In this document: positions 50,538 through 64,000 of the stretch, in pieces | Numbering within the stretch: position 1 is the stretch's first letter | How the letters are laid out: each line of letters starts with the position of its first letter | From: Gemmatimonadota bacterium | Lineage (GTDB): Bacteria; Gemmatimonadota; Gemmatimonadetes; Gemmatimonadales; Gemmatimonadaceae | Length of the DNA stretch: 64,000 nucleotides | Direction of reading: 5' to 3' | NCBI GenBank assembly: GCA_028287235.1 | Contig: JAQBQB010000017.1 | Coordinates: forward strand, 62,001 to 126,000 | Translations under genes and position numbers: made by a program | The notes under the pieces: model-generated | Databases searched by the model: none | The model's input: the letters and a program-made list of their open reading frames with translations, nothing else | What the model was told of the DNA's origin: nothing

Positions 50538-50556
50538 GCTCGCTGGCGTGTCGGCG

Positions 50557-50762: not shown

Positions 50763-50811
50763 GCGCAGGACACAAGGAGGAGCCGTTCAAGCTTAGCGTC
50801 AACCAAGGTAC

Positions 50812-50841
50812 CAAAAAGAGGCGCAAGCAATTGCCTGCGCC
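50812..50841 (-). terminator. Rho-independent terminator for the 50936 lipoprotein gene
   Basis: On the minus strand, GGCGCAGGCAA pairs with TTGCTTGCGCC (10 of 11 positions; stem 50820-50841) and is followed directly by TCTTTTTGG, a U-tract. It lies about 95 bp after the stop of the minus-strand lipoprotein gene and is the natural end of that operon. Confidence 0.75.
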
Positions 50842-50935
50842 CCTCCGTTCCCGTTTCCCCTTTGTCAAGTCACCATGGGGGCAAGTTGGTTTCAACCGAA
50901 CAATCAGCAACGCCGCCGACACGATGCGGCGGCGC

Positions 50936-51553: not shown

Positions 51554-51560
51554 TATGACC

Positions 51561-52415
51561 TCAAATTCCGCTGCAAGTTTCCGAGTGTGGTGTGCTAAAG
51601 GTCGCCTGATCTGTATGCCAACCGCCGCTGGCGGATTTCTGCCCCATAAGATGATCGGCCTCGTGAGCGAGAATCTGCTGAAGATCACGACTGACAGGCT
51701 CAGGTGGCGAGGCGGTCGCGTGGAACGAGTTGAATGCCTCGTCCGTCCAGAATGATTTGATTGCAATCCACGAGTTGACGCCGGTGCTGCCGCCACCCGG
51801 TGGCGCGGCGCCGCTAAACTGTGCGATGGAGCTGGGATAAATATGGATGTCGCCGCGAGCCGCTACAGCCGCTAACGTGCTTGCTAGCGTCGAGCAATAA
51901 CCACCTAGACCTTGCATTGCGCTAATCGCGTTGTTGATTCGTGTATTCTGAAGGCCAGTGGGTGCTGCTCCCCCACACCATGCCTTCGCGCCAGAATCGC
52001 TCTGCGCAACACCGCAGTCGGGTCTGGCCGTCATTGACGATACGTCCACTTCGCCAACCGAAGGGTAGTTGAACGCGGGGTTAGTGAATGGCGTCGGGAA
52101 CCCGGTCTCGTAGAACATGCATTCATCCACATTGTCTTGGCAGAATTGCTCCATGCCCACGCTCAGCAGTGAGTCATAGTAGAGCCCACTCGCATCGTAG
52201 CAACTGTAGTCGATCCCGCCGTTTTCAGGTGCAGGCCCTTCGCACTGGTAGAATTGGTACATTATCATGCGACTGGCGGGCCCGGCCGGTGCGCGCGCCT
52301 GTGGATTCAGCGGGTTCGATTGATCCCCACATGCGGAGAGCATTGAGCCGGCCAACACAAGAACTATAACGATGTTCGAACGCAGAGAGCGTCGCAGTCC
52401 TTCCGTTTTGTTCAC
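51561..52415 (-). CDS. Cysteine-rich lipoprotein with HExxH-like metal motif
   Basis: 284 residues from the GTG at 52415, preceded by a GGAGAGG ribosome site; the longer frame upstream has no SD. A lipoprotein signal (I-V-I-V-L-V-L-A-G-S-M-L-S-A-C, Cys near 28) leads into a domain with several cysteines (Q-C-E, Y-S-C-Y, F-C-Q-D-N-V-D-E-C, C-G-V-A, W-C-G-G, Y-C-S-T), then H-E-A-D-H-L-M-G near residue 258, a zincin-type HExxH, and a final E-T-C. The metal motif is followed by only about 25 residues, so the third ligand is unknown and activity is not certain. It is co-transcribed with the 50936 lipoprotein gene. Confidence 0.7.
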   Translation of the reverse strand: MNKTEGLRRSLRSNIVIVLVLAGSMLSACGDQSNPLNPQARAPAGPASRMIMYQFYQCEGPAPENGGIDYSCYDASGLYYDSLLSVGMEQFCQDNVDECMFYETGFPTPFTNPAFNYPSVGEVDVSSMTARPDCGVAQSDSGAKAWCGGAAPTGLQNTRINNAISAMQGLGGYCSTLASTLAAVAARGDIHIYPSSIAQFSGAAPPGGGSTGVNSWIAIKSFWTDEAFNSFHATASPPEPVSRDLQQILAHEADHLMGQKSASGGWHTDQATFSTPHSETCSGI

Positions 52416-52557
52416 GTTTCCTCTCCTGAAGGGGACATCGCGGCGCCTCGAGGGTGGGTGAGGTTGCTGAGGGCCGGAACGCGGTTGCGATCGCTTCACG
52501 GCGATTGGACTCGCGTTCGATTCAGGAACGTAGACGCTGCTTTGGTTGGCTCCGATG

Positions 52558-52592
52558 CGCGTTTTCGGCCACCTTTCGCGTATTCCGGCCAC
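52558..52592 (-). repeat. Tandem near-identical repeats, possible transposon end
   Basis: On the minus strand GTGGCCGGAATACGCG (52577-52592) and GTGGCCGAAAACGCG (52558-52572) lie in tandem about 20 bp apart, in the 310-bp gap upstream of the metalloprotease-like lipoprotein gene. Multiple terminal repeats of this kind mark IS21-type ends, but no transposase gene is attached, so this may be a relic. Other parts of the 52416-52726 gap hold no gene. Confidence 0.35.
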
Positions 52593-52726
52593 GAGCTTTT
52601 TCTTGTTTGGGGCGTTTGAATTAGCGATGTGGAGCGTTGTGCGAGCGGTGGTACTTCAGTGACGGCGCTTTACGTCTCCCTGACAGCGAGCACTTCAGCA
52701 GGGACACTCCGACCCGTTCGCTTTGC

Positions 52727-53527
52727 TCAACCGCGGTCACAAACGTGATGCACGGCGCTCTCAAGCACTTCGTTCTCGGACATGCGACGAAAGTCGTGCA
52801 GTGTTCGGCCTGTGACACGGCGCACATCGTCCCCAAGCTTCCGCGCCGACGGCACGCCGACCATCGCAGCGACCGCATCGCCGTTTCGTAGTGAATCGCG
52901 AAGCAGGGGTAACGAGCGGGCAACGCGTGACGCCGTCAGCAATCGACTCAGCGACACCAAGCCCGAATCAGCAAACCACCGATCACATGAGCGCCTCGGA
53001 ATTGCGCCCGCATCGCAAATCGCTCCAGAGCTAGCGTAGTACTGCGGCCTTCGCAAAGCGTCGACAAGGACGTTGGCGAACTGCACTGGCATTAGGTCGA
53101 TGTTGGCTCGAAGTCGCCCGATCAGCCGTTCTATCACGCGATCGGACGGCATGGCATCAATTACGGCTCTCAATGCCGCTCGAGAATCATCAAATCGGTA
53201 GAGAACGGCGTGAGTAATCCCCGACCGCGCGAAGTCGAGCGTGGCTCGTACTGAGGCCGCATCCGTCGTTGTGTAAGTCAAGACACGACTTGCGCTCACC
53301 ATTGCGAGCAGTCGTGAGGCTGTTCGCTCATCGTGTTGCACCATGTGGTATGGCTCGATCACCACGACGTCGGCAACGGACAGTGTCGACCAAATGAATG
53401 CGGCGACTGGTGACTCGCTCATGAGCGTATAGTCGTCGCCGATGACAGACTCAAGCCGCCGCGTAAGTGTCGGCGAGCAAACGACTATTAGGCGCATTCT
53501 GGACGTCAGTGGTGCTCGGCGTTTCAT
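52727..53527 (-). CDS. AraC-type HTH protein with receiver-like N-domain
   Basis: 266 residues from M at 53527 (a second Met at 53497 is equally possible). The N-terminal 130 residues resemble a response-regulator-like fold (L-I-V-V-C-S-P-T-L-T-R-R-L-E, D-V-V-V-I-E-P-Y, L-A-M-V-S-A-S-R-V-L-T-Y-T) but lack the acidic phosphorylation pocket. The C-terminal third has an AraC-like double HTH: S-R-V-A-R-S-L-P-L-L-R-D-S-L-R-N-G, then A-A-M-V-G-V-P-S-A-R-K-L-G-D-D-V-R-R-V-T-G-R-T-L-H-D-F-R-R. This combination is common in Gemmatimonadota. It stands alone between IS-related sequence and a large gap, and its targets are unknown. Confidence 0.7.
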   Translation of the reverse strand: MKRRAPLTSRMRLIVVCSPTLTRRLESVIGDDYTLMSESPVAAFIWSTLSVADVVVIEPYHMVQHDERTASRLLAMVSASRVLTYTTTDAASVRATLDFARSGITHAVLYRFDDSRAALRAVIDAMPSDRVIERLIGRLRANIDLMPVQFANVLVDALRRPQYYASSGAICDAGAIPRRSCDRWFADSGLVSLSRLLTASRVARSLPLLRDSLRNGDAVAAMVGVPSARKLGDDVRRVTGRTLHDFRRMSENEVLESAVHHVCDRG

Positions 53528-54294
53528 GTGTCGGGTTACCGAGGTCGGCTGAATCATTCTCGGCCACGTCGCCTCACACGCGCCCACTTGCCTCAAACGC
53601 AATCCCGTGCAAGGGATCCGAATATCAGGCTAGCCTCATCGCCTGAGCCAAGTCCTGCGCCGACTGCCCATCATCTGCGGGCCGTCGCCGTGTACGACCG
53701 GTTCATGCTCAGGCTGCAACGCATAATACCGGCACATCGCGCAACAGACGTTGGGCGTTTCTCTCACGATAGCCCAGCGGCCCGAACGATCGGGCCTTAA
53801 GAGGCATACCGGACTGCAGCGAGTGAAGGCAACGACATTCGCTGATCACTGGCGCTCCAGACTTCCATGCCTCAGCGGGATTACCTCCTGCCGTAGCGAA
53901 TGGAGGCGTTCACTCCGATGATGCTGTGGCCCGTTAAGGCCTCTCGTTGTTAGCGCAGTGGTTAGCCATGCAACGTTTATTCCCAACAATTAGGATATTG
54001 ATCAATTAGAGACATCTAATCTTTCAACCGTCTGCCGCCTTTTCGGGGGCTAAAGGCGACGTTCTTGGCCGACGTACGACGCACCTTTTGCGACAATGCC
54101 GCGCTGATCGGCGTCCCTATTGCGGATAGTGGGCGGCTGAGCCGTTCGTCATGAGTCGTGCTCGCGCGCTTCAACCAACGGTCGCTCGCGCCTCGTACGA
54201 CATATATGACTTTGCCCGAACGATCGCTGGAGGGTAGACTTCGTGAGCGATGGGCTGGCCGACGGGCGGAAGTCCCGCACCCTCACCCTCGTTG
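53528..54294. other. Gene-poor 767-bp gap with an AT-rich palindrome
   Basis: No credible gene is seen between the AraC-type gene and the intact IS3 element. The stretch 53960-54030 is clearly AT-rich. Within it ATTAGA-GACA-TCTAAT (54005-54020) is a perfect 6-4-6 inverted repeat, perhaps an orphan operator. The rest contains only short, unlikely frames. Confidence 0.45.
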
Positions 54295-54392
54295 GGCGGT
54301 TCCCCCCGGAAGTGGGAGGGGGCGGACTTGCGGAAAGCGCGCGCTGATGGTCTGATCACGGCGTCCCAAAATGGGCGCGGAGGAGCGATCCG

Positions 54393-54659
54393 ATGCGGAC
54401 GAGCAAGTTCAGCGAGGAGCAGATCGTCACGGCGTTACGGCACGCGGAAGCCGGCACCGCCGTCGTGGACATCTGCCGGACGATGGAGATCACCGAGACC
54501 ACGTTCTACCGCTGGAAGAAGAAGTATTACGGCTTGGGCGTGAGCGAGCTCCGCGAGCTGAAGCAGCTGCGGGACGAGAATCGCAAACTCAAAGGCTTGG
54601 TCGCCGATCTCACGCTCGACAAGCAGATCTTGCGGGAGACTCTCACAACAAAAATCTGA
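54393..54659 (+). CDS. IS3 OrfA (transposase DNA-binding subunit)
   Basis: 88 residues: F-S-E-E-Q-I-V-T-A-L-R-H-A-E-A-G-T and I-T-E-T-T-F-Y-R-W-K-K-K-Y-Y (HTH_Tnp_1), followed by a leucine-zipper helix (L-R-E-L-K-Q-L-R-D-E-N-R-K-L). It ends in L-T-T-K-I and a TGA at 54657-54659. The A-tract AAAAA at 54650-54654 precedes the stop and allows -1 slippage into OrfB. Confidence 0.92.
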   Translation: MRTSKFSEEQIVTALRHAEAGTAVVDICRTMEITETTFYRWKKKYYGLGVSELRELKQLRDENRKLKGLVADLTLDKQILRETLTTKI

Positions 54660-55516
54660 GGCCGGCGGCGAAACGGGCGTGGGTGCAGTGGGTCGTGGAG
54701 ACGTACCAGGTGTCCGGACGCCGTGCGATGCGCGCGACAGGCGTGGCGTCCTCCACGATGCATGACCAGCACCGCCGGCCTTCTCAGAACGCGTTGCGAG
54801 CGCGGCTACGCGAGCTCGCGGCGGCGCGGGTGAGCTATGGCTACCTGCGCCTCCACGTGCTGCTCCGGCGCGAAGGCTGGCGCGTCAACCACAAGCGCGT
54901 GTATCGGCTGTACCGCGAGGAAGGACTGGCCCTGCAGCGTCGGCGGCCGAAGCGGCGGCGCAGTGCGATGCCGCGCTCCCCACGTACGATCACAACGCGG
55001 CCGAACGAACGCTGGGCGATGGACTTCATGCAGGACGGGCTGGCGGACGGCCGTACGGTGCGCGTATTCACGCTCATCGATGCCCACACGCGCGAGTGCT
55101 TGGCGCTCGAGGCCGCCCCGCAGTTTCGGGGGGCGGACGTCGCCGCGATCCTCAGCAGGGTGATCGCGGAACGCGGAGCGCCACAGATCATTCAGTGCGA
55201 CCAAGGCACCGAGTTCACGTCGATCGCGCTGGACCAGTGGGCGTACTGGAACAAGGTGCATCTAGACTTCAGCCGCCGCGGCACGCCGGGGGACAACGCG
55301 GTCTGCGAAGCTTTCAACGGGAGCGTTCGACGTGAGTGCCTATCGCCAGCCTACTTTCTGAGCGACGTTGACGCCCAGGGCGTGTTAGAGAACTGGAAGC
55401 TCGATTACAACAACCATCGGCCCCACAGCAGTTTGCAGGACCTCTCGCCGGCTCATTTCCGAGCCCGGGAGTTGAACCCCGAGGCTGTTAGCGAACGCTC
55501 AAAGCAACCCGCCTAG
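54650..55516 (+). CDS. IS3 OrfB (DDE transposase)
   Basis: The -1 frame continues from the OrfA A-tract as K-N-L-R-P-A-A-K-R-A-W and gives about 289 residues. It contains the HTH_21 region (V-S-Y-G-Y-L-R-L-H-V-L-L-R-R-E-G-W-R), the catalytic residues D (W-A-M-D-F-M-Q-D-G), D (Q-C-D-Q-G-T-E-F) and E (A-V-C-E-A-F-N-G), then N-H-R-P-H-S-S-L-Q-D-L. The frame is unbroken, and OrfAB fusion by programmed frameshift is normal in IS3 elements. No independent start codon with a ribosome site was found, supporting the frameshift mode. Confidence 0.9.
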   Translation, partial: KNLRPAAKRAWVQWVVETYQVSGRRAMRATGVASSTMHDQHRRPSQNALRARLRELAAARVSYGYLRLHVLLRREGWRVNHKRVYRLYREEGLALQRRRPKRRRSAMPRSPRTITTRPNERWAMDFMQDGLADGRTVRVFTLIDAHTRECLALEAAPQFRGADVAAILSRVIAERGAPQIIQCDQGTEFTSIALDQWAYWNKVHLDFSRRGTPGDNAVCEAFNGSVRRECLSPAYFLSDVDAQGVLENWKLDYNNHRPHSSLQDLSPAHFRARELNPEAVSERSKQPA

Positions 55517-55676
55517 TGCTCCAGCTTTGGGGGGAACCGCCGCCCTGGAGCAACGGTGCAGCCTAGTCGTCATGCAGGGGCGTCGCGTCCGGAGACCGAT
55601 AATATTAAAACTCTTTAACATTCGACAGTTGAGGCGCTCGGCTGTACCTTAGTCGTCGACCCACTAGGGAGATCGT

Positions 55677-56024
55677 ATGCGACGACTTCTGCTCATCGCT
55701 GCTTTGGCGATCGGCGTTCCGCTTACCGTTCACGCTCAATCGTCTACGCCGCCGGCCGAATCCGTTCACGGTTACACGAAGAAGAACGGAACGACTGTCG
55801 CCCCACACAGACGATCGATTGCGGACGGGACGAAGCTGAACAACTTCAGCGCAAAAGGGAACGTGAACCCGTACACCGGCAAGAAGGGCACGAAGAGCGT
55901 CTCGCCCTCAGCCCGCGGTCCGCGTATCTCGAGCCGGTCCGCAGCTCCCAAGGGTTCGCATGCGCCGCGGTCCTCGTCACGGTCGTCTGCCTCGCACTCG
56001 CCCGGACACTCGCGCAGGAAGTAG
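55677..56024 (+). CDS. Small secreted basic protein
   Basis: 115 residues with a signal peptide (L-L-L-I-A-A-L-A-I-G-V-P-L-T-V-H-A-Q). The mature part has V-H-G-Y-T-K-K-N-G-T-T-V-A-P-H-R-R-S and then N-V-N-P-Y-T-G-K-K-G-T-K-S, a pattern recurring in small bacterial and phage proteins ('G-Y-x-R-K-D-G-T-x-V-x-P-H-x-R-T ... N-x-N-P-Y-T-G-K'), ending in a Ser/Arg-rich basic tail. Its function is not known; a DNA- or wall-binding role is possible. The ribosome site AGGGAG lies 8 bp before the ATG. The gene stands alone beyond the IS3 element and opens the defence-like region. Confidence 0.75.
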   Translation: MRRLLLIAALAIGVPLTVHAQSSTPPAESVHGYTKKNGTTVAPHRRSIADGTKLNNFSAKGNVNPYTGKKGTKSVSPSARGPRISSRSAAPKGSHAPRSSSRSSASHSPGHSRRK

Positions 56025-56198
56025 CTGCAGACGATCAGCACGCAGCCACGTCGATGGTTTATTCGTGGGACCCAGTTCATATATGCGCGGCCGATCGTCG
56101 TACCCCCCTCGGCCTCCGAAAGCGATTCGCGAGCTCATCGAGGAGTGGTGGGAGATGAAGAAGGGTCCTGCGCAAATGTGAATGCTACCAACGCGAAG

Positions 56199-56741
56199 AT
56201 GACCGAGAGTCGATGCCCGTTGTGTCGGAACGCCGCGACGCGAGTAAAACCGCCCGACGAGCTGAATCATGTCGATATCGATTGCCGCCGTTGCGGTGCG
56301 TATCGGATCGGGCGAACGAGCGAAGCGCGCATGCTCCAATCGGGAACTGAGGAGATTCGCGCCGTGGCTTGCCGCCAGATTGCCGATGCAAATGCTCGCG
56401 GCCGGATCTTGAACCTCGTCAACGCCACGATGTTTCGCGACGAGGCGGGACGCCTCGCACGACTCGGTGTGTGTCCGGTTTGTGGAACGGCCGGCGGGTC
56501 GGCAACGGCCCTTCCGAATGGCGCCGACATCAACGACGTGATCTGTGCGAGATGCGGCGAGTATCGCGTAACTGGGCAGGAGCGACTCGATCTAGCAGAG
56601 CTGAGTCGCGGGCACCGCACGAAGCTCAGCGCGGAGCTGCGAACCGCGGCGGACGCCGGGGCACCGCGGTTGCTCGCCTTCGGATTCTCCCGGCGAATTA
56701 TCGAGAGTGGCTGGCGGATTGCGCCCGCGCGTGACGCGTAA
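56199..56741 (+). CDS. Zinc-ribbon protein, unknown
   Basis: 180 residues from the ATG at 56199. It carries C-P-L-C near the start, C-R-R-C at about residue 30, and then C-P-V-C and C-A-R-C around 92 and 120, i.e. two zinc-ribbon pairs (C-x2-C...C-x2-C). The spacing resembles rubredoxin-type knuckles rather than HNH motifs, and no catalytic histidine cluster is present. The remainder is helical (L-D-L-A-E-L-S-R-G-H-R-T). I cannot assign a family. The gene partly overlaps the next gene at 56707 (35 bp), which also encodes several zinc knuckles, so the two likely act together. Confidence 0.65.
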   Translation: MTESRCPLCRNAATRVKPPDELNHVDIDCRRCGAYRIGRTSEARMLQSGTEEIRAVACRQIADANARGRILNLVNATMFRDEAGRLARLGVCPVCGTAGGSATALPNGADINDVICARCGEYRVTGQERLDLAELSRGHRTKLSAELRTAADAGAPRLLAFGFSRRIIESGWRIAPARDA

Positions 56742-57405
56742 GAAATCTGTGGCCGAGCCCCGCCGCCGCGGTGCGCCCCCGGCCCTTGACGGCTTCGCCA
56801 TTGCGCTCCGGCGGCCGACGTCGAAGCCAGTCAGTCTCGCGGTATATCTCGCAGCCCTGCGATCGCATCGGCTCAACGACTTTGCTGGACTTGTGCGTCG
56901 GTGTCCCGGCTGCAAAAAGGCGTCGAACCTCCGCATTCGGTTTCGTCGACCTGACGACGGCAGGTTCGCGGTCGGTTGTCCGCGATGCATCTCCAAGGTG
57001 CGCCCATGTGCGCGATGCAACCAGCCGAGAGCGATTGATTCATTTGACATTAGCCCGAGCGCCAGACTGGGATTCAAACTCGAGTCCTACTGCAATCCGT
57101 GCCGGCGGGCGCGCGGAATGGCGTACTACATCACGACGCGCGACAAACCGCGCGAAGTACCGAAGCGGATCAAATGCCGTCGCTGTGAACGGGTGAGGCC
57201 AGCCGGAGAATTCGTCGGATACGACGGCCGCTATACGCCTGGTAACGCCCGCCTCTGCAATCAGTGCAAGCAGGAAGACGAACGAGCACGGTATGCAACT
57301 CCTGGCGGCAAAGCGATTCGCCAGGCCGTCAATCGTCGGTCGTATCGCCGACGCCGAGGGCTCAAGGCCGTTCCTGAGCAGGCGCCCCGGGGCCGAGCGC
57401 GATGA
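56707..57405 (+). CDS. Multi-zinc-knuckle protein, unknown
   Basis: 232 residues, GTG start at 56707 (an alternative GTG a little downstream is possible). Three C-x2-C pairs appear in order: C-P-G-C and C-P-R-C, then C-A-R-C and C-N-P-C, then C-R-R-C and C-N-Q-C, each pair separated by 20-40 residues, with a basic C-terminal tail (R-R-S-Y-R-R-R-R-G). The pattern 'C-x2-C ... F ... L-G ... C-x2-C' is like the zinc-binding leaders of recombination endonuclease VII and HNH proteins, but no nuclease core follows. It overlaps both neighbours, and its stop overlaps the 57402 start (ATGA), so the three genes are coupled. Confidence 0.65.
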   Translation: MAGGLRPRVTRKKSVAEPRRRGAPPALDGFAIALRRPTSKPVSLAVYLAALRSHRLNDFAGLVRRCPGCKKASNLRIRFRRPDDGRFAVGCPRCISKVRPCARCNQPRAIDSFDISPSARLGFKLESYCNPCRRARGMAYYITTRDKPREVPKRIKCRRCERVRPAGEFVGYDGRYTPGNARLCNQCKQEDERARYATPGGKAIRQAVNRRSYRRRRGLKAVPEQAPRGRAR

Positions 57406-58049
57406 ACACGGTCGCGCATCTAAAGAGCGACATTCTCGTCACGGCACTAGTAACGCTGATTTCCGGACTGGGCGGCGCTTTGCTCGGCGCCCGAGCCGTT
57501 TGGCGTACGCAGACGCGAGCACTCCGTCTGAGCGAGCAATCGATCGCCAACGCGCTACTGCAGGATCTCCGCCGGATTGAATCGATGCTCCCCCAGGTGG
57601 GTCCGCACGGTCATATCGCTCTACATCACATTTCCGACGCTCACGCGTATCCATCGATCCACGAATGGGTCAAGCCACTCATCACCGATTTGGCGTCGCG
57701 CGACGCGAGCGTTGTCGGCGGCTTCATGGCCCTGGAGCCGATGCTCGAGGAAAACCGGACGTTGGGAAATGCAGCATGGAGCGCAGACGTCGATCTCGCG
57801 CGCCTGACCGGAGAGATGGTGGACCGTCAAGCGCAGCGCGACGACCCGAATAAAGTCTCAGCGCGGAAGCAGGTCGAATTCCGCATGGCCGAAGTGGAGG
57901 AGCTTCTCGAAGCCTCTCGTCGTCAGCAGGCCGAATCGGCTAGCGTTTACCGCGCCCAACACGCAAAGCTGCTTCACCATCTGGGGGAACTCCGCGATCA
58001 TCTTCACATCATCACGACCGCGTCGATTCCCCAATCACTTTATTGGTAG
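57402..58049 (+). CDS. Single-pass membrane protein with coiled coil, unknown
   Basis: 215 residues whose start overlaps the preceding stop (ATGA). One membrane helix lies near residues 10-30 (I-L-V-T-A-L-V-T-L-I-S-G-L-G-G-A-L-L-G). The remainder is helical and partly coiled-coil: L-L-Q-D-L-R-R-I-E-S-M-L, and V-E-F-R-M-A-E-V-E-E-L-L-E-A-S-R-R-Q-Q-A. It has no known catalytic motif. The topology suggests a membrane-anchored adaptor or sensor. The upstream zinc-ribbon genes and the downstream SEC-C gene make a defence-island context plausible, but the function is unknown. Confidence 0.6.
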   Translation: MNTVAHLKSDILVTALVTLISGLGGALLGARAVWRTQTRALRLSEQSIANALLQDLRRIESMLPQVGPHGHIALHHISDAHAYPSIHEWVKPLITDLASRDASVVGGFMALEPMLEENRTLGNAAWSADVDLARLTGEMVDRQAQRDDPNKVSARKQVEFRMAEVEELLEASRRQQAESASVYRAQHAKLLHHLGELRDHLHIITTASIPQSLYW

Positions 58050-58130
58050 CAGATGGCCTCGGCCAACGTCGTTGCCCCGTGCGGCAGAGGGACATTCGGA
58101 ATGATTCTACGTGGCCGGAAAGCGTAACTC

Positions 58131-58796
58131 GTGACGCCCCCCAGGGCGGTGCTCACACGGTTGCCCTCAGAGGTTACCCTCGAAGTGCGTCAGGCTTGCG
58201 CACGGCTCGGCCTTGTTGATGAACCGCGCTTCGTCGATATCCGGCCCGATCCATCAGCGGTCATCAACAAATGCATCTTCAACGTGCTGGCCGCCGTCTC
58301 GGCAGGTCGCGGCAGCCTCGTTCTGGGATGGAAGACCCATGTTTGGCCACGGGTCCTCGTCGAATTCGTGGGCCATGCGGTGCTCGCCGTCGATGACGTG
58401 CTCATGTGCATCACGCCGGATCGATACGGTGAGACGATGGTGCTTTTCGTACCCGATGCGCGCATTGCGTTCGATCCGAACGATTCGACGGCCAGGATGC
58501 CCTCGCAACTTGTCGCCTGCAGTGATCATGAGGATATCGCGGCATTCATCCGCACCCGGCAGGAAATGGACGCTATCCGCAAGGCGTACCCGCCCGGAGC
58601 TGGCGACCTACTCTTGACCGGGGCAGAAGCAGAACGCTTTCGGAAGCTGGAACGCGCCCAGCGGCGTGCGCTTCGTGACATATCGCTTCGCACGCTCGAT
58701 CACAACGCGCCTTGTGTCTGCGGCCGCGCTAAGGCGTTCAAGAAGTGCTGTCGCCCGGGGATGCTCAGGGAGAGAGACGCTAAACGAACGACATAG
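58131..58796 (+). CDS. SEC-C motif protein, unknown
   Basis: 221 residues from a GTG at 58131. The C-terminus has the SEC-C zinc motif C-V-C-G-R-A-K-A-F-K-K-C-C (residues about 199-211), the pattern found on SecA and on many stand-alone proteins and on some toxin/defence genes. The first 160 residues form an unrecognised domain (V-L-G-W-K-T-H-V-W-P-R-V-L-V-E-F-V-G-H-A-V-L) with mixed alpha/beta composition. No signal peptide. It lies 81 bp after the membrane-adaptor gene and before a 319-bp gap preceding the TIR gene. A nucleic-acid or chaperone role is inference. Confidence 0.65.
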   Translation: MTPPRAVLTRLPSEVTLEVRQACARLGLVDEPRFVDIRPDPSAVINKCIFNVLAAVSAGRGSLVLGWKTHVWPRVLVEFVGHAVLAVDDVLMCITPDRYGETMVLFVPDARIAFDPNDSTARMPSQLVACSDHEDIAAFIRTRQEMDAIRKAYPPGAGDLLLTGAEAERFRKLERAQRRALRDISLRTLDHNAPCVCGRAKAFKKCCRPGMLRERDAKRTT

Positions 58797-59115
58797 CCTG
58801 ATAGCATCGGTTACAGCGCGGATCGACCGGGTCACTCTCCGACGCCAGCACGCCGAATAGTCGAGACGTCTACTCGGCGCGGGGCGCGACACTGGGATCC
58901 ACTCGCGCGGCGTGCCGGCATCGCGATCATCGTTAACCCGCACAACGCCAGCACGCTTACAGCTCCGAATAGCGACTCTCAAACCTCTCTGGCGAAATTA
59001 GATTGCTCATGCCCATCATCGTTTTGTTGAGACCTGCGGGGCTTCTGAAATAGGTGCGCGGGCGATCTGAGACAGGCCGGATCACGGTTGCGACATGCAT
59101 CTCATCATTCAATCT
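58797..59115. other. Gap upstream of the TIR gene without recognised gene
   Basis: These 319 bases contain no convincing reading frame; a minus-strand frame at 58957-59370 overlaps the TIR gene and is a shadow. The promoter for the TIR gene should lie here, but no consensus pair stands out. Confidence 0.4.
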
Positions 59116-59940
59116 ATGGCACGCCTTTTTATCAGTCACGCAAGTGAAGACAAAGCCGCGGTCGCAGAGCCGGTGTATCGGAAGCTGCTGCAGCTGGGTC
59201 ATGAAGCTTGGCTCGACAGGTTTGAGTTGACTCTCGGGGACACGCTGTCCCGCGAGATCGACAAGGGGTTGTCCGCGTGCGACTTCGGTGTTGTCATTCT
59301 GAGCCCTCGCTTCTTTGCCAAGTCGTGGCCTCGCGTAGAGCTGGACGCCCTTGTCGCTAGAGAGGCTCAAGAAGGACAGAAGCGCATCTTACCGGTGTGG
59401 CACGATGTTGTGACCGAAGATGTGGCCAGGTATTCGCCGATCCTCGCAACCAAGCTTGGTATTTCGACGTCGCACGGAATCGAAGCCGTCGTTGACGCTA
59501 TCGAACGCGCACTCAGGCATGGCCGCCCGATTGGCGAATCGTTCCAACCGGAAGCAAGACTCCGGCGGGCCAGCCACATCACAGTGAGGTCGCCGTCGCT
59601 GCAGGTGGGTGACCGTGGACCAGCAGGCCTCCTTTATCGAGCTGAAACGACGTTCGTCAACGCGGGATCACGAGCAGCGGTGTTGAGCTTTCAGCTGCGA
59701 TTCCAGCTGGACGCAACGGACATTCGTGCGTGGGTTGCGATTCCGGAAGGTCCAATGCACGAAAATGAAAGGATCCGAGTGGAAGCAGAGGGCTTCGCCA
59801 CTCGAGAGCTCATCTTTCACTTTACCGACACGACGTCATATGGTGGTCGCGAGTCAATTCGTCGACGCGACGCTCGCCTCTGGATTACCGACCACGTGAG
59901 CGGGTCGCAGTCGCTCGTTACGGTACCAACGGGCTTGTAA
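59116..59940 (+). CDS. TIR-domain protein with C-terminal beta domain
   Basis: 274 residues from the ATG at 59116 (an upstream Met at 59095 adds seven unlikely residues). The TIR domain (1-140) shows L-F-I-S-H-A-S-E-D-K, W-L-D-R-F-E-L-T-L-G, V-V-I-L-S-P-R-F-F and K-S-W-P-R-V-E-L, with Glu75 in the position of the catalytic glutamate of NAD-cleaving bacterial TIR proteins. The C-terminal 130 residues are beta-sandwich-like (R-A-E-T-T-F-V-N-A-G-S-R-A-A-V-L-S-F) and unassigned, perhaps a ligand sensor. Such stand-alone TIRs act as phage-defence effectors by NAD depletion. It is convergent with the dCTP deaminase operon, 22 bp from its stop. Confidence 0.9.
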   Translation: MARLFISHASEDKAAVAEPVYRKLLQLGHEAWLDRFELTLGDTLSREIDKGLSACDFGVVILSPRFFAKSWPRVELDALVAREAQEGQKRILPVWHDVVTEDVARYSPILATKLGISTSHGIEAVVDAIERALRHGRPIGESFQPEARLRRASHITVRSPSLQVGDRGPAGLLYRAETTFVNAGSRAAVLSFQLRFQLDATDIRAWVAIPEGPMHENERIRVEAEGFATRELIFHFTDTTSYGGRESIRRRDARLWITDHVSGSQSLVTVPTGL

Positions 59941-59962
59941 CGCGTCAGTCGGCCCACCACAA

Positions 59963-60625
59963 TCAGAAAGTCTCCGTCACGCCATCTTCGATGGAGCCGC
60001 CTTTGCTCAACGCCGCCGCGCGCGTATCGAGCACCACGTCAGCGTGAACGGGCCGCCTGTGACCCATGAGGAAGGAGCCTTTCACAGGCTCAAGTGCGGC
60101 TGACGAGAGTTGCTGGAGACTAAGTTGGCAGACTGTCACTCCGGGTTTCAGCGTGATGGGATGCTCGCCGATGTTCGCCAATTCGAGTGTGAGGCAACCG
60201 ACGAAATTCGGATGCACTAGCGTCGCCGTCGCGACGTTCAAGCCCCGTCGACCCCATTTCGATTTTCCGGTGACTGTGCCGGATAAGTCGGCGGGCATAC
60301 CGAGCCATTCAAGCGTCACTGCCATCACAAAATTTCCCGGATGGAGAAAAAAACATCCACCGAACGGCACGTACACCGTCTTCCCAGGACGTTCGCCCGG
60401 ACTGCGCGGTCCCGGCTCGTCGAGCTCATAGGCTGCCCGAGTATGCAACCGCGGAATTTCGAACCATGTTCCGAGCCGCAAATCAACAGCGCATCCTTGA
60501 ATTGCACCGCCGTCGTCAGACGAGTTCGGCCGGCGGAGCGGCTCAATTACGAGGCGCTGGCAATTGGTCCCGTCCTCGTGTTGTCCGTCGAGGCGTGCGC
60601 GGATCCCACGATCGCTGAGCATCAT
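59963..60625 (-). CDS. dcd: dCTP deaminase-family protein
   Basis: 220 residues aligning along the whole of Dcd: L-S-D-R-G-I near the start, V-D-L-R-L-G, F-F-L-H-P-G-N-F-V-M-A-V-T-L-E, the active loop G-K-S-K-W-G-R-R-G-L with the conserved Arg, and H-P-N-F-V-G-C-L-T-L-E-L-A-N with the catalytic glutamate. It is therefore probably an active nucleotide deaminase that converts dCTP to dUTP. Standalone or operon-borne Dcd proteins are known phage-defence factors that exhaust the dCTP pool. Here it is the last gene of an operon headed by an XRE repressor and its start overlaps the peptidase stop by 4 bp. A housekeeping role in thymidylate synthesis is the alternative. Confidence 0.88.
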   Translation of the reverse strand: MMLSDRGIRARLDGQHEDGTNCQRLVIEPLRRPNSSDDGGAIQGCAVDLRLGTWFEIPRLHTRAAYELDEPGPRSPGERPGKTVYVPFGGCFFLHPGNFVMAVTLEWLGMPADLSGTVTGKSKWGRRGLNVATATLVHPNFVGCLTLELANIGEHPITLKPGVTVCQLSLQQLSSAALEPVKGSFLMGHRRPVHADVVLDTRAAALSKGGSIEDGVTETF

Positions 60626-61845
60626 GGCGCGGCGTCGATGAAGTGCCAGTAGTCTTGTCCTTGCACCGACTTCAGAACGAGGTCGTTGATCAATCGTCCG
60701 CGTTCGTTACGCAAATATGGGGTTGATGCCCACAGCTGATCGTTCGTCCAGAGGTCCCAGCCCGCGCACATGATCTCTGGCAGGCTGGATGAAGCCGGCG
60801 CGGGAGTAATCCGCTCGAGTGACAGTTTCGCTTCTACTCGGCCGACGGTACCGGGGACGGTGAGGCCTCGGTTCGAAGCATAGGATGCGACTGCGTCGAT
60901 CAATTGCGGGAGCAGGTCGGACACCGTCGCCGACATTAGCTCCGGAAATAGGTCCCCTGGCGGGGATGCACGAAACCTCTGGGAAAAGGCCGCCGGGGCC
61001 GCGGTGCCGAACACCGGCGCCGCGACTTCGAGAATTTCGGCGCGGCGACGCGCGGTCGGATACGAGAATGTCTTGTCCGCGGCTAAGCCGGGCGCCAGTA
61101 GGTGGGCGAAGGCGTGACAATAACTCTCTCCGAACACGAACAAACCGAAAAGATCGCAGAAAATCTCTTCGCACTGTGCACGTACGAAGCCGCCAAGCTG
61201 CGCCCGCGCGGAGATTGCTCTCTGATCCTGGCGGAGCTCCGCTTCGTCAGTGAGTCCGAGCGCGGCGCTCACCTCTTTCCACCGCCCACGCATCTGGTTG
61301 AAAATCCCAGCTTCGATCGCCCGCGCAAACCGCTTCGCGAGCTGCTGACGGACCCAAACGGGATGACCAAACTCGTGTCCCGCGATGGGGATGAGCAGGG
61401 CGTTGTCAGCTTCCGACGCCGGCAAGCCAAGCAGAATGAAATTCGGGATACCACCCATCGACGGATGGGTGTACGGAGAAAATTCCCATTCGCTAGAAAT
61501 GATCAAGCGGACATCGGAGTCGATCGCGAGCTGCGCCAAACGCTTCAGCGGGCCGTGCACCTCGAACGGATTGCTGGGGTGCCGCGCGCGATGCAGAAAG
61601 CCGATGTGCGGCAGAAAATGGAACAGACTCAGGAGGATGAGCTCGCAGTGGTTCTCGACGACCGCCGCATCCGTCGCGTTCACATTGAACGCGTGCAACT
61701 GGCTGCGATGTTCCTGGAAGTGTTCAGCTATCGCCGCGAGGGCATCGGCCGTGTCAGCTTGGAGCAACGACCCACGTCGTACCGCGTCGATTCGATCGAT
61801 CACGCGATCGACCTTTTCGAGCATGGATGCGACGAGCGGCGTCAC
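60622..61845 (-). CDS. HEFGH-motif zinc metallopeptidase, unknown
   Basis: About 407 residues from a GTG at 61845, 4 bp after the upstream stop; a Met at 61824 is an alternative, and no strong SD decides. The motif A-G-H-E-F-G-H-P-V-W is at about residues 155-164, a gluzincin-type HExxH, followed about 70 residues later by E-E-I-F-C-D-L-F-G, which supplies a plausible third ligand. No signal peptide. The surrounding helical domain does not match the short ImmA/IrrE fold exactly, but the partnership with an XRE repressor resembles ImmR/ImmA pairs, in which the peptidase cleaves the repressor. It is coupled to the dCTP deaminase gene by a 4-bp overlap. Confidence 0.8.
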   Translation of the reverse strand: MTPLVASMLEKVDRVIDRIDAVRRGSLLQADTADALAAIAEHFQEHRSQLHAFNVNATDAAVVENHCELILLSLFHFLPHIGFLHRARHPSNPFEVHGPLKRLAQLAIDSDVRLIISSEWEFSPYTHPSMGGIPNFILLGLPASEADNALLIPIAGHEFGHPVWVRQQLAKRFARAIEAGIFNQMRGRWKEVSAALGLTDEAELRQDQRAISARAQLGGFVRAQCEEIFCDLFGLFVFGESYCHAFAHLLAPGLAADKTFSYPTARRRAEILEVAAPVFGTAAPAAFSQRFRASPPGDLFPELMSATVSDLLPQLIDAVASYASNRGLTVPGTVGRVEAKLSLERITPAPASSSLPEIMCAGWDLWTNDQLWASTPYLRNERGRLINDLVLKSVQGQDYWHFIDAAP

Positions 61846-61849
61846 GCGA

Positions 61850-62374
61850 CTACCCGACCTGCCGCAGATAGCCCAACAGCGCGGCAGATCGTGGAGAGCG
61901 TGCGGCGATCGAGAGCCCGATCGAAAAATCACGAAGCTCGATAAGCTTCGGCTTGCCAAGGCTCGCCAGCACCGACGCGTCTCCCATTGATGCGGCGACG
62001 AAATCATGCGCAGCGGCCTGTCCGCGCTCACCCGGATCATCCGAACCGTGTCCGGTCAGTGTTGGCAGCCGCGATAACAGCTCTGTCGTCTCCGGGTCGG
62101 CAAGCTTCGCCTGATCAGGCGTGCTAACGTCAACCGATTGGCCCAGCCCCGACGCAAGGACAGCACCGAGCTGGCGGATGGGGCGGAGGTCGATGGCGCG
62201 ATCGTGAATCCCGCCGTCGAGCGCAATTGCCGCCCGAGATGCGAGTAACGACAGTTCGGTTCGGCCAAGGAGCCCCGGCGGGAGCGCTTCGCGGTCTGTC
62301 TGCTCTGCGTGTTGCCGTCGGCTGGTATCCGCACCTTCAGCCAGCACTGCTCGAGGATGTTCTTGCATCGTCAC
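61850..62374 (-). CDS. Unknown 174-residue protein in the XRE operon
   Basis: The start overlaps the XRE stop by 4 bp, and the peptidase start follows its stop by 4 bp, so it is translated as part of a coupled operon. The sequence is hydrophilic with charged N-terminus and helical parts (E-L-S-L-L-A-S-R-A-A-I-A-L, A-A-H-D-F-V-A-A-S-M-G, F-S-I-G-L-S-I-A-A-R-S-P-R-S). There is no signal peptide, membrane helix, metal motif or family I recognise. Its conserved place between a repressor and a peptidase suggests that it is a partner or substrate of one of them. Confidence 0.65.
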   Translation of the reverse strand: MTMQEHPRAVLAEGADTSRRQHAEQTDREALPPGLLGRTELSLLASRAAIALDGGIHDRAIDLRPIRQLGAVLASGLGQSVDVSTPDQAKLADPETTELLSRLPTLTGHGSDDPGERGQAAAHDFVAASMGDASVLASLGKPKLIELRDFSIGLSIAARSPRSAALLGYLRQVG

Positions 62375-62727
62375 GGGGTCCTGGTTTTGTCGTCGATGGA
62401 ATCATCGGTCCGCGTCGACCGCAGGTAGCCAACAAATCGCCGGACTTGTTCGAGCTCGAGTTCGGACAAGTCGTTCATCTCGCCGAGGGAGTTGGACGCC
62501 ACGGTAATCGGCTCTGCGCTCCGATAGCCAGAAAGCTCCATTAAGAGGGAGTACGAAACGCCATACAGAGACGCGAGCTTTTCCAGGAGATTCGGTGACG
62601 GCCGCTGAACCGTGCCCGATTCGAGAAGACTGAGATGCCCGTTTGAAATGCCAGTCTCACGTTCCACATCGCGCAGAGACAGGCCCAAACGGGCACGCGA
62701 GTCCTTCATTAGTTGTCCGAGTGTCAT
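62371..62727 (-). CDS. XRE-family HTH repressor
   Basis: 118 residues from the ATG at 62727 (the frame opens at 62763, but M-T-L-G-Q-L-M-K-D is the natural start). The Cro/CI-type HTH covers residues 4-62 (L-S-L-R-D-V-E-R-E-T-G-I-S-N-G-H, then L-S-L-L-E-S-G and L-E-K-L-A-S-L-Y-G-V). A short helical tail (L-E-Q-V-R-R-F-V-G-Y-L) may form dimers or bind the peptidase. Its stop overlaps the next gene by 4 bp. Its own promoter and the divergent ubiquitin-like operon promoter both lie in the 187-bp region covered by the palindromes at 62778-62878, so it probably represses both. Confidence 0.92.
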   Translation of the reverse strand: MTLGQLMKDSRARLGLSLRDVERETGISNGHLSLLESGTVQRPSPNLLEKLASLYGVSYSLLMELSGYRSAEPITVASNSLGEMNDLSELELEQVRRFVGYLRSTRTDDSIDDKTRTP

Positions 62728-62762
62728 GCCATCTCCTGCGTGAGTGCTCGATCTACACAGCA

Positions 62763-62791
62763 AAGATATCTGGAAATGCTCGTTCTGTCAA
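62763..62791 (-). promoter_or_regulatory. Promoter of the XRE-peptidase-dcd operon
   Basis: On the minus strand TTGACA (62786-62791) and TATCTT (62763-62768) are separated by 17 bp, a strong sigma-70-type match. The -35 hexamer lies inside the degenerate operator at 62778-62793, which implies autorepression by the XRE protein. Confidence 0.75.
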
Positions 62792-62793
62792 GC
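62778..62793. promoter_or_regulatory. Degenerate XRE operator O3
   Basis: GCTCGT-TCTG-TCAAGC matches the palindrome at 62841 at 10 of 12 arm positions. It overlaps the -35 region of the XRE promoter. Its centre is 63 bp, i.e. three times 21 bp, from the centre of O1, so all three sites would face the same side of the helix. Confidence 0.55.
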
Positions 62794-62840
62794 GCGTAAG
62801 TGCCTGTACAGTAACAGAATCCAAGATTGAAGAATATTAT

Positions 62841-62856
62841 GCTTGACCATTCAAGC
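62841..62856. promoter_or_regulatory. XRE operator O1
   Basis: GCTTGA-CCAT-TCAAGC is a perfect 6-4-6 palindrome. It overlies the -35 hexamer TTGACC (62843-62848) of the divergent ubiquitin-like operon. Its form matches a Cro/CI-type operator. Confidence 0.75.
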
Positions 62857-62871
62857 GCTATGCTTTATCAT
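62843..62871 (+). promoter_or_regulatory. Promoter of the ubiquitin-like operon
   Basis: TTGACC (62843-62848) and TATCAT (62866-62871) are spaced by 17 bp and lie 44 bp before the ubiquitin-like gene start at 62915. Both hexamers are inside palindromic operators, so repression by promoter occlusion is expected. Confidence 0.7.
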
Positions 62872-62878
62872 TAAAGCA
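62861..62878. promoter_or_regulatory. XRE operator O2
   Basis: TGCTTTA-TCAT-TAAAGCA is a perfect 7-4-7 palindrome, centred 21 bp from O1 and overlapping the -10 hexamer TATCAT (62866-62871). O1 and O2 share the core G-C-T-T-x-A-N4-T-x-A-A-G-C and so appear to be recognised by the same dimeric repressor. Confidence 0.75.
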
Positions 62879-62914
62879 CGAAAGTAAGACGGAAATACCA
62901 TCGCTGAGGTCAAC

Positions 62915-63301
62915 ATGAAGAGCCCTACTGATAGTTCACAGCAACTCGCTTCAAACGGGGATGTTCGCACACCTGGCACATCCGTCACGCCCGGTGATGA
63001 GCCGGTTGACGTCGAAGAGTTCGCGACTAGGGGTCATCCTGTCCCCAAGGCGACGCGATATCGGATTCGCGTTGATCGAAGTGTGTACATCGTCAACGGG
63101 CCGAACATCACAGGCCGCGAAGTCCTCGAAGTGTCGAACCACGTGCCGGTAGAGCACTGGCGCCTCGACGAACGCTTCCGTGGAGGCGCGACCAAGAAGG
63201 TCGAGCTGAACGAGGTCGTGGACCTGACGACCGCTGGCCTCGAGCGATTCATGACGCTTCCGCTCGACCAAACCGAGGGAGCGCGCCCGACGGGCGCATG
63301 A
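62915..63301 (+). CDS. Ubiquitin-like protein of the multiubiquitin family
   Basis: 128 residues. After a disordered N-terminal 45 residues there is one ubiquitin-like beta-grasp domain: Y-R-I-R-V-D-R-S-V-Y-I-V, then P-N-I-T-G-R-E-V-L-E-V, V-P-V-E-H-W-R-L-D-E-R-F, and a closing strand V-E-L-N-E-V-V-D-L-T-T-A-G-L-E-R-F-M-T. The 'I-T-G-R-E-V-L' and 'V-D-L-T-x-x-G-x-E-R-F' motifs are those of bacterial multiubiquitin-domain proteins in predicted ubiquitin-like conjugation operons. Only one domain is present. The C-terminus ends T-G-A, not Gly-Gly, so maturation by removal of the last residue may be needed. It is the first gene of the operon containing an E2-like and a JAB/E1-like product. Confidence 0.82.
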   Translation: MKSPTDSSQQLASNGDVRTPGTSVTPGDEPVDVEEFATRGHPVPKATRYRIRVDRSVYIVNGPNITGREVLEVSNHVPVEHWRLDERFRGGATKKVELNEVVDLTTAGLERFMTLPLDQTEGARPTGA

Positions 63302-63305
63302 TCCC

Positions 63306-63722
63306 ATGTCAACATCGACGAGTGCCGCTTTGCGGAGGCAATTTGCGCTGCCGGAAGACGACGTCGATGCGCTCGACGCCTGGGGCCTGGTGTGGGAGAC
63401 GGCAGTGATCGATGGCGTGCAGTGGTTGTTCCTCACCGACTTTCCGGTGCCCGACGGGTTCAACGTATCGCGTGTGACACTTGCCGTGCGGATCATACCT
63501 GGCTATCCGGCGGCAGCTCTCGACATGCTATACGTTCTGCCGGCGATCGTCCGTGCCGACGGCAAAGCCATCCCCGCATTGACGCTCACTTCGATTGAGG
63601 GACGAACCTTTCAACAATGGTCGAGACACTACACGGCCGAACACCCCTGGCGCCCCGACGTGGACAATGTCAGCAGCCATCTGCGCGCCGGTGAGGAGTG
63701 GTTTAGGAAGGCGCTGCGATGA
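63306..63722 (+). CDS. Prokaryotic E2-like (family E) protein lacking cysteine
   Basis: 138 residues beginning 5 bp after the ubiquitin-like gene. The E2-like fold is indicated by the order F-L-T-D-F-P-V-P-D-G, V-T-L-A-V-R-I-I-P-G-Y-P-A-A-A-L-D-M, L-P-A-I-V-R-A-D-G-K and the closing F-Q-Q-W-S-R-H-Y...W-R-P-D-V-D-N-V-S-S-H-L, which is the pattern of the Prok-E2_E family found in these operons. No cysteine occurs anywhere in the protein, so a thioester with ubiquitin cannot form by the usual route; the conserved histidine in W-S-R-H may have a different role. Its stop overlaps the next start (ATGA at 63719-63722). Confidence 0.8.
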   Translation: MSTSTSAALRRQFALPEDDVDALDAWGLVWETAVIDGVQWLFLTDFPVPDGFNVSRVTLAVRIIPGYPAAALDMLYVLPAIVRADGKAIPALTLTSIEGRTFQQWSRHYTAEHPWRPDVDNVSSHLRAGEEWFRKALR

Positions 63723-64000
63723 TCGCCACATCGAACCGCGAGTCGCTGCGGAGCCGTGTTCGCCTTCGTATGACCGAAGCTCAACATGCGACCGTATACC
63801 AGCATCTCTTTCCCGGAGACGGCTACGAAGCAGTGGCGGTGCTCGTCTGTGGCCGAGGAGGTACGCCCGGCGACGAAGTCCTGCTTGTGCACACCGTCGT
63901 ACCGATTCCGCACGACGAGTGTGCCGAACGCACTCCGGTCCGGGTCACCTGGTCGACCGATCGACTGAGGCGCTTGCTCGAAGGTGCCGCGAAGCATGCT
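63719..64000 (+). CDS. Presumed JAB/ThiF (E1-like) protein, 3' end outside window
   Basis: The first 94 residues are visible and the frame is open to the window end. The start ATG overlaps the E2-like stop. The sequence L-R-M-T-E-A-Q-H-A-T-V-Y-Q-H-L-F-P-G-D-G-Y-E-A-V-A-V resembles the N-terminus of the JAB-domain proteins that are fused to, or partner with, ThiF-type E1 enzymes in these operons; E-A-V-A-V-L-V-C-G-R supplies a possible JAB glutamate. Later H-x-H...D and ThiF motifs would lie outside the window, so the assignment is inference from position and the N-terminal pattern. It would activate or remove the ubiquitin-like protein. Confidence 0.6.
   Translation, partial: MIATSNRESLRSRVRLRMTEAQHATVYQHLFPGDGYEAVAVLVCGRGGTPGDEVLLVHTVVPIPHDECAERTPVRVTWSTDRLRRLLEGAAKHA

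What the first reader, a model, noticed from the sequence alone, without database searches (positions are those of the whole stretch)
59963..64000. Divergent ubiquitin-like and dCTP-deaminase/peptidase operons under one repressor
Two arms share a 187-bp control region. One arm, XRE - unknown - HEFGH peptidase - dCTP deaminase, has overlapping or near-abutting genes. The other is a ubiquitin-like protein, a prokaryotic E2-like protein and a presumed JAB/E1 gene. Both promoters lie in or near palindromes of the same form. Bacterial ubiquitin-like conjugation genes and dCTP deaminase defence genes are each known, but I do not know of a locus joining them with an XRE/HExxH switch. The peptidase could cleave the XRE repressor, as ImmA cleaves ImmR, and release both arms on infection.
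Basis: partly seen in the sequence, partly recalled or inferred. Interest (0 to 1): 0.9.

Follow-up and report, generated by a model that had tools for sequence, protein, structure and literature searches.

The report
Ubiquitin-like and deaminase operons sharing repressor
A bacterium carries two probable anti-virus gene sets back to back, one that tags proteins with a ubiquitin-like label and one built from an unnamed protease and a specialised nucleotide deaminase, both apparently held off by one repressor; the pairing recurs in other bacteria and the second set looks like an undescribed, mobile defence module.

Summary
Extending past the window edge confirms the right arm: multiubiquitin, cysteine-less E2 (Prok-E2_E), fused JAB-E1 and DUF6527, i.e. 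a known type-6e/"Bub" operon. The left arm is XRE, a small helical protein, a HExxH peptidase and a dCTP-deaminase-fold protein. The last three form a conserved trio: peptidase and Dcd adjacent in 27 of 29 loci found by a peptidase scan, across many phyla, on plasmids, in prophages and beside defence genes. Peptidase and small protein match no Pfam, NCBIfam, PADLOC or PHROG family. The linkage is not unique: three Caulobacterales loci carry the same divergent layout, and a Solirubrobacterales locus a variant.

One-repressor control is well supported. Three copies of GCTTGA-N4-TCAAGC sit on the two promoters; the same site precedes related XREs elsewhere and is absent from sister Bub operons without XRE.

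That the peptidase cleaves XRE is weakly supported: it is not ImmA/CapP-like, is tied to Dcd rather than XRE, and in Caulobacterales a true M78 peptidase follows XRE as well. Here that M78 is missing, so local substitution cannot be excluded. I read it as a two-output immune locus: a Bub operon plus an undescribed small-protease-Dcd module under one CapH-like repressor. No function was tested.

The parts
59963..60625 (-). dcd: accessory dCTP-deaminase-fold protein, 220 aa, third gene of the trio
   Evidence: PF22769 5e-27, TIGR02274 6e-28 just over cut-off; S122, R126, A134, E148 catalytic positions kept, Asp of ordinary Dcd replaced by His138; the genome has a separate ordinary Dcd and a dUTPase
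60622..61824 (-). pep: HExxH metallopeptidase, 400 aa from ATG 61824 (GTG 61845 possible); overlaps dcd by 4 nt
   Evidence: no family in Pfam, NCBIfam, PADLOC, PHROGs; 23-member alignment A2; AF2 model pLDDT 90.6
61363..61377 (-). HEFGH zinc/catalytic motif (H150, E151, H154)
   Evidence: invariant in 23 of 23 relatives
61153..61167 (-). E220-x3-D224, probable third zinc ligand motif
   Evidence: invariant in 23 of 23; HExxH + ExxxD layout is gluzincin-like (inference)
61850..62374 (-). small helical protein, 174 aa, first gene of the trio
   Evidence: same family upstream of pep in 26 of 29 loci (HMM; alignment A4); all-helical model, pLDDT 78
62371..62727 (-). XRE repressor, CapH-like
   Evidence: HTH_31 2e-12, PADLOC capH 1.6e-8; 34-47% identical to XREs next to M78 genes at Bub operons
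62728..62914 (.). shared divergent control region, 187 bp
62778..62793 (.). operator 1, GCTCGTTCTGTCAAGC (10/12), overlaps the left-arm -35
62841..62856 (.). operator 2, GCTTGACCATTCAAGC (12/12), overlaps the right-arm -35
62862..62877 (.). operator 3, GCTTTATCATTAAAGC (10/12), overlaps the right-arm -10
62763..62791 (-). left-arm promoter TTGACA-17-TATCTT
62843..62871 (+). right-arm promoter TTGACC-17-TATCAT
62915..63301 (+). ubiquitin-like protein (Multi_ubiq, one domain)
   Evidence: PF14452 1e-8
63306..63722 (+). E2-like protein (Prok-E2_E), contains no cysteine
   Evidence: PF14462 6e-31; sequence
63719..64000 (+). JAB-E1 fusion, 5' part; whole gene is L002:5720-7174 (484 aa), followed by DUF6527 at L002:7171-7557
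   Evidence: Prok-JAB 1e-6, ThiF 1e-33, DUF6527 1e-19

Best explanation
It is a two-output immune locus. A CapH-like XRE repressor sits on three copies of one operator in the divergent promoter region and holds down two modules. One is a Bub (type 6e) operon that attaches a ubiquitin-like protein to targets. The other is a self-contained trio of small helical protein, zincin peptidase and Dcd-fold deaminase. On a stress or infection signal the repressor is lifted and both arms are made. In the trio the deaminase is most likely the effector, draining or altering the deoxycytidine nucleotide pool, and the small protein and peptidase gate it after translation, with the peptidase cutting the small protein or the Dcd tail. 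Shown: gene content, conservation of the trio, operator-like sites on both promoters, recurrence of the pairing. Inferred: repression by XRE, the trigger, the gating, deaminase activity and anti-phage function.
For: Trio: a peptidase-profile scan of 84,980 species gave 29 loci; Dcd directly downstream in 27 and the small protein upstream in 26. The exceptions are contig ends (L044 for Dcd, L064 for the small protein), a haloarchaeal locus without either (L066), and L067 without the small protein. Mobility and defence setting: Rhizobium plasmids with subtilase, trypsin and AAA genes; viral contigs L078-L080 beside genes that read as terminase, portal and tail genes (by eye); type I/III restriction genes, TIR-WD40, caspases, PLD-helicase. 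Active-site residues: Dcd S/R/A in 22 of 23 and E in 23 of 23; peptidase HExxH and ExxxD in 23 of 23. Accessory, not housekeeping: ordinary Dcd and dUTPase elsewhere in the genome. Pairing: L052, L055, L059 have DUF6527-E1-E2-Ub divergent from XRE-M78-small-pep-dcd; L067 a variant. One control: operator sites; the two-site pattern with one mismatch occurs nowhere else in 5.73 Mb; the same site at 11/12 before XRE in L035 and L037 and at 10/12 in L052 and L059; below 10/12 at sister Bub operons L027 and L028, which lack XRE.
Against: No experiment. The operator is not significant at L055 (P 0.07-0.10) or L057 (P above 0.5). The trio usually has no XRE. No free-standing M78 was found in this genome, so the derepression step lacks its usual enzyme. 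The Dcd has His where ordinary enzymes have an acid, so its substrate may differ. About half of the trio loci show no defence gene nearby.
Confidence: 0.5

Rival explanations
1. One reading: the HEFGH peptidase cleaves the XRE repressor, as ImmA/CapP does, and so releases both arms.
For: It is the only HExxH peptidase at this locus. The M78 gene that follows XRE in L035, L037, L052, L055, L059 and L067 is missing here. The only M78 elsewhere in the genome is a self-contained XRE-M78 fusion. L057 likewise has XRE with the trio and no M78.
Against: The peptidase family shares only the HExxH box with M78 (hhalign 12%). It is coupled to Dcd in loci that have no XRE. In three Caulobacterales loci XRE has both M78 and the trio, so the peptidase is not needed for cleavage there.
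Confidence: 0.2
2. Independent neighbours: XRE controls only its own arm and the Bub operon happens to lie next to it.
For: Many loci carry only one arm. The window's E1 is closest to L027 and L028, which lack XRE and trio.
Against: Two of three operators lie on the Bub promoter, one of them the perfect copy. The same divergent layout and site recur in L052 and L059, and XRE-M78 lies divergent to Bub-type operons in L035 and L037 with the site upstream of XRE. In 12 trio genomes, 3 of 4 Prok-E2_E genes lie beside the trio.
Confidence: 0.1
3. The trio is a toxin-antitoxin unit in the narrow sense: the small protein is an antitoxin of the Dcd and the peptidase destroys it, with no link in function to the Bub arm.
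For: Fixed order small-pep-dcd with overlapping genes, stand-alone occurrence, presence in prophages and plasmids. AvcID shows that a deaminase toxin with a labile antitoxin gives phage defence (PMC10511110).
Against: No toxicity data. The small protein is the fastest-evolving member (22% mean column identity), which does not discriminate. Shared operators argue for joint control with Bub here.
Confidence: 0.2
4. Ordinary metabolism: an extra dCTP deaminase for dUMP supply next to an unrelated peptidase.
For: The Dcd active site is largely intact.
Against: The genome already has Dcd and dUTPase; the peptidase and Dcd travel together across phyla and on mobile DNA.
Confidence: 0.04

Closest known systems
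Bub (bacterial ubiquitination-like) operons; type 6e of Iyer et al. 2006 (PMC1779556)
   Same: Right arm: Ub-like, cysteine-less E2/RWD, JAB+E1 fusion, zinc-binding DUF6527; sits next to a DNA-binding regulator as many Bub operons do (PMC13373217: 219 of 544 have CapW or CapH+CapP)
   Different: The regulator operon carries a peptidase-Dcd trio instead of CapP; PMC13373217 mentions no deaminase
CapH+CapP regulators of immune operons (cited in PMC13373217, PMC10904395)
   Same: XRE repressor of the CapH type, divergent from the immune operon, with operators on both promoters
   Different: No M78/CapP gene at this locus; an unrelated HExxH peptidase is present
CapK+CapS between a restriction system and a Bub/CBASS operon (PMC13373217)
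   Same: One regulator placed between two immune modules; 88 of 443 cases there are read as coordination
   Different: Different regulators; the second module there is a known restriction system
AvcID deoxycytidylate deaminase toxin-antitoxin (PMC10511110)
   Same: Deaminase-based depletion of dC nucleotides is the mechanism proposed here by analogy
   Different: AvcD is not of the Dcd/dUTPase fold (own knowledge) and is controlled by an RNA; here the enzyme is PF22769 and its partners are proteins
Ordinary Dcd (PDB 2j4h, 2qxx)
   Same: Fold and catalytic Ser/Arg/Ala/Glu
   Different: His replaces the acid of the Dcd/dUTPase active site in 21 of 23; a different C-terminal tail

Membership tests
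Bub / type 6e operon | Multiubiquitin-type Ub-like gene | tested here: met
   PF14452 35.5 bits, cut-off 24.5
Bub / type 6e operon | E2/RWD-like protein without catalytic Cys (Prok-E2_E) | tested here: met
   PF14462 107 bits; no Cys in the sequence
Bub / type 6e operon | JAB + E1 (ThiF) fusion | tested here: met
   L002:5720-7174
Bub / type 6e operon | Zn protein C-x3-C-x(35-38)-H-x2-C | tested here: met
   DUF6527 1e-19; motif present with a spacer of 34 by eye, one short of the published 35-38
Bub / type 6e operon | conjugates the Ub-like protein to targets | not testable with these tools
   needs biochemistry
CapH+CapP (ImmR/ImmA type) regulator | XRE repressor of the CapH type | tested here: met
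   PADLOC capH 1.6e-8; related to XREs paired with M78
CapH+CapP (ImmR/ImmA type) regulator | adjacent M78 peptidase | tested here: not met
   no M78 at the locus; only one M78 in the genome, an XRE-M78 fusion
CapH+CapP (ImmR/ImmA type) regulator | operators over the regulated promoters | tested here: met
   binding itself untested
Peptidase_M78 (ImmA/IrrE/CapP) | sequence profile PF06114 for the HEFGH peptidase | tested here: not met
   no hit for the window protein at E<=1 nor for 23 relatives at E<=0.1; hhalign 12% over 12 columns
Zincin (gluzincin-like) metallopeptidase | HExxH plus downstream Glu ligand | tested here: met
   H150, E151, H154, E220, D224 invariant in 23 of 23; metal binding untested
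Zincin (gluzincin-like) metallopeptidase | fold match to solved zincins | tested here: inconclusive
   no Foldseek hit at E<=0.001; ZMPSTE24/Ste24 head the VIA list at Z about 6, rmsd about 10 A, inside the noise
dCTP deaminase (Dcd) | fold and catalytic S/R/A/E | tested here: met
dCTP deaminase (Dcd) | acid at the active-site Asp position | tested here: not met
   His in 21 of 23 against Asp in 2j4h and 2qxx
dCTP deaminase (Dcd) | deaminates dCTP | not testable with these tools
   needs an assay
Catalogued anti-phage system (PADLOC) | profile hit for the trio proteins | tested here: not met
   none for Dcd, peptidase or small protein

The most novel reading that the evidence does not exclude
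The small protein-zincin-Dcd trio is an undescribed, widespread, mobile anti-phage system: a protease-gated nucleotide-pool effector with a rewired Dcd active site that works alone in many phyla and has repeatedly been wired to protein-modifying or proteolytic immune modules (Bub, subtilase-trypsin-AAA, caspases), here with its peptidase replacing CapP so that one cleavage event switches on both ubiquitin-like tagging and nucleotide depletion.
Probability: 0.3. Interest if true: 0.85.

Novelty: new variant of a known kind. Interest (0 to 1): 0.62.

Why it matters
Bub operons have no demonstrated protective role yet (PMC13373217). A locus that puts one under the same repressor as a probable nucleotide-attacking module gives a testable setting for what Bub does and when. 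Separately, the trio is a conserved three-gene family with an unnamed peptidase, an unnamed helical partner and a Dcd with a consistent active-site change. If it is a defence system, it adds the Dcd/dUTPase fold to the enzymes used to starve phages of nucleotides, with protein-level gating by a protease.

Tried and rejected
Peptidase as ImmA/CapP homologue: rejected by profile and hhalign. Peptidase or small protein as members of any Pfam, NCBIfam, PADLOC or PHROG family: none. Fold matches: Foldseek against PDB and BFVD gave nothing at E<=0.001; VIA-align puts ZMPSTE24/Ste24 first but inside the noise range. One origin of the four Bub-paired trios: holding window, L052, L055 and L059 as one clade is rejected (p 2e-5) but adding L056 and L057 is not (p 0.12), and the window row is long-branched, so independent pairing is likely but not proven. 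Peptidase relatives in the window's own family with the single sequence: only the window in 179 genomes. Caulobacterales-order sample: one strong and two weak hits in 348 genomes, so the trio is rare. Operator at L057: not above chance. Papers on a peptidase-dCTP deaminase pair: none found. Gong 2025, Ye 2026 and Lau 2022 were not held, so their supplements may list such neighbours. First script failed on a file name.
Full report
What was checked. The window ends inside the right arm, so I took the rest of the contig (G000:C20, locus L002). The cut gene is a 484-aa fusion of Prok-JAB and ThiF, and a DUF6527 gene overlaps its end. With Multi_ubiq and Prok-E2_E upstream, this is operon type 6e of Iyer et al. 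2006 (PMC1779556), whose E2-like member lacks cysteine, as does the one here, and which carries a small zinc-motif protein. I equate it with the operons now called Bub (PMC13373217); that equation rests on gene content, since the papers that define Bub were not held.

Left arm. XRE (62371-62727), a 174-aa protein (61850-62374), a peptidase with HEFGH (60622-61824) and a Dcd-fold protein (59963-60625) overlap or nearly abut. The peptidase and the small protein match nothing in Pfam, NCBIfam, PADLOC or PHROGs. Dcd matches PF22769 and TIGR02274. The genome has two further members of that superfamily, an ordinary Dcd and a dUTPase, so this copy is accessory.

The trio. Plasmids gave a first relative: Rhizobium phaseoli plasmids carry small protein, peptidase, dcd, then subtilase, trypsin-like and AAA genes. 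A profile of the peptidase was used for the single scan of 84,980 species: 29 loci from Alphaproteobacteria, Gammaproteobacteria, Thermodesulfobacteriota, Verrucomicrobiota, Planctomycetota, Kiritimatiellota, Hydrogenedentota, Actinomycetota and a haloarchaeon. With profiles, dcd lies directly downstream in 27 and the small protein upstream in 26. The gaps are contig ends (L044 for dcd, L064 for the small protein), a haloarchaeal locus without either (L066), and L067 without the small protein. Three viral contigs carry the trio or parts of it among genes that read as terminase, portal and tail genes (by eye, not by profile). Other neighbours include restriction genes (L048, L054, L061), TIR-WD40 (L049), caspases (L057), subtilase (L056) and a PLD-helicase (L065) (L061 by eye). 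About half of the loci stand alone among housekeeping genes.

Active sites. In 23 aligned peptidases HExxH, ExxxD and two further residues (R261, K385) are invariant. In 23 Dcds the catalytic Ser, Arg and Ala are kept in 22 and the Glu in 23. One change is systematic: the Asp of ordinary Dcd (IDPGW in 2j4h, IDPGF in 2qxx) is His in 21 of 23. From own knowledge this residue contacts the sugar in Dcd and dUTPase, so substrate choice may differ. That is inference. The peptidase model is confident (pLDDT 90.6) but has no clear solved relative. The small protein is helical.

Is the pairing more than chance? L052, L055 and L059 (Caulobacterales) have the complete Bub operon divergent from XRE-M78-(small RHH-like gene)-small-pep-dcd. 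L067 (Solirubrobacterales) has pep-dcd next to E1, with XRE-M78 beyond. Of 12 genomes of trio loci tested for Prok-E2_E, four have one, and in three it lies beside the trio. Those three loci were known beforehand, so this shows tightness of linkage, not an unbiased rate. In a 298-genome sample of the window's own phylum 17 genomes had Prok-E2_E; among those I could inspect, only the window has the trio, while several have XRE + M78 instead. The E1 tree puts the window with L027 and L028 (no XRE, no trio), and that clade beside the Caulobacterales trio loci (100/99). The peptidase+Dcd tree rejects a clade of the four Bub-paired trios (p 2e-5) because L057 (no Bub) nests among them; adding L056 and L057 is not rejected (p 0.12). 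So the modules have been separated and joined at least once, possibly more.

Shared control. The two sigma-70-like promoters are confirmed. The palindromes share one form, GCTTGA-N4-TCAAGC. Three copies lie in the 187 bp: over the left -35, the right -35 and the right -10. Elsewhere in the 64 kb only two sites reach 10/12. Dinucleotide shuffles never reach the three-site sum in 2,000. In the whole genome the pattern built from the two strong sites, with one mismatch allowed, occurs only there; the reversed control pattern gives two chance hits. Since the pattern was built on these sites, the independent evidence is elsewhere: 11/12 sites before XRE in L035 and L037, 10/12 in L052 and L059, fewer in L055, none above chance in L057, and none at 10/12 or better at sister Bub operons L027 and L028, which lack XRE. 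XRE binding is therefore likely but not shown.

Mechanism. In relatives the XRE is followed by an M78 peptidase, the CapH+CapP arrangement in which ssDNA-activated CapP cuts CapH (PMC13373217, PMC10904395). Here M78 is absent, and the only other M78 of the genome is an XRE-M78 fusion. The trio's peptidase could have taken over (rival 1), but its family is bound to Dcd, not to XRE, and is unrelated to M78 beyond HExxH. I therefore place its conserved role inside the trio, as gate of the Dcd effector together with the small protein, and leave the XRE trigger open. Depletion of dC nucleotides as a defence has a precedent in AvcID (PMC10511110), with an enzyme of another fold (own knowledge).

Novelty. 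Bub operons and CapH-type control are known, and one regulator between two immune modules has been noted for CapK+CapS (PMC13373217). New as far as the held libraries show: the small-peptidase-Dcd family itself, its pairing with Bub, and a CapH-like repressor serving both. I rate the locus a new variant of a known kind; the trio could deserve more once tested.

Noticed in passing
window 59095-59940 (+): TIR-domain protein (TIR_2 1e-21; PADLOC PDC-S66 1e-45 over the TIR part) convergent with dcd, 22 bp away; likely another defence gene of the same island.
   Followed up: partly
window about 50000-64000: Third-position GC of called genes falls to about 0.62-0.77 from mostly 0.71-0.91 to the left, and an IS3-type transposase (rve) lies at 49956-50537; looks like an acquired island.
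   Followed up: partly
window 45176-46282 (-) and 43093-44106 (-): Tle1-like phospholipase domain (5e-77) and an Exo_endo_phos protein at the left of the island.
   Followed up: no
L052 9092-9442, L055, L056, L057, L059: A 110-116-aa gene (ribbon-helix-helix-like by eye, no Pfam hit) sits just upstream of the trio in five alphaproteobacterial loci and is absent from the window.
   Followed up: partly
L024, L031, L033, L035, L036, L037: Bub-type operons in the window's own phylum often have an adjacent XRE + M78 pair (CapH/CapP-like), several with quite different E1 lineages.
   Followed up: partly
L022, L023, L066: Haloarchaeal plasmid/genome loci carry a distant peptidase relative without dcd, beside UvrD-helicase, PD-(D/E)XK nuclease and other unknown genes.
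   Followed up: no
L057 10749-12941 and 15211-17439: Trio flanked by two caspase-domain proteins and a subtilase-like gene; L056 and the Rhizobium loci also have subtilases, so the trio keeps company with protease modules.
   Followed up: no
L081 1204-2313 (-): The genome's only M78 is fused to an XRE domain and lies next to a TIR-like gene.
   Followed up: no
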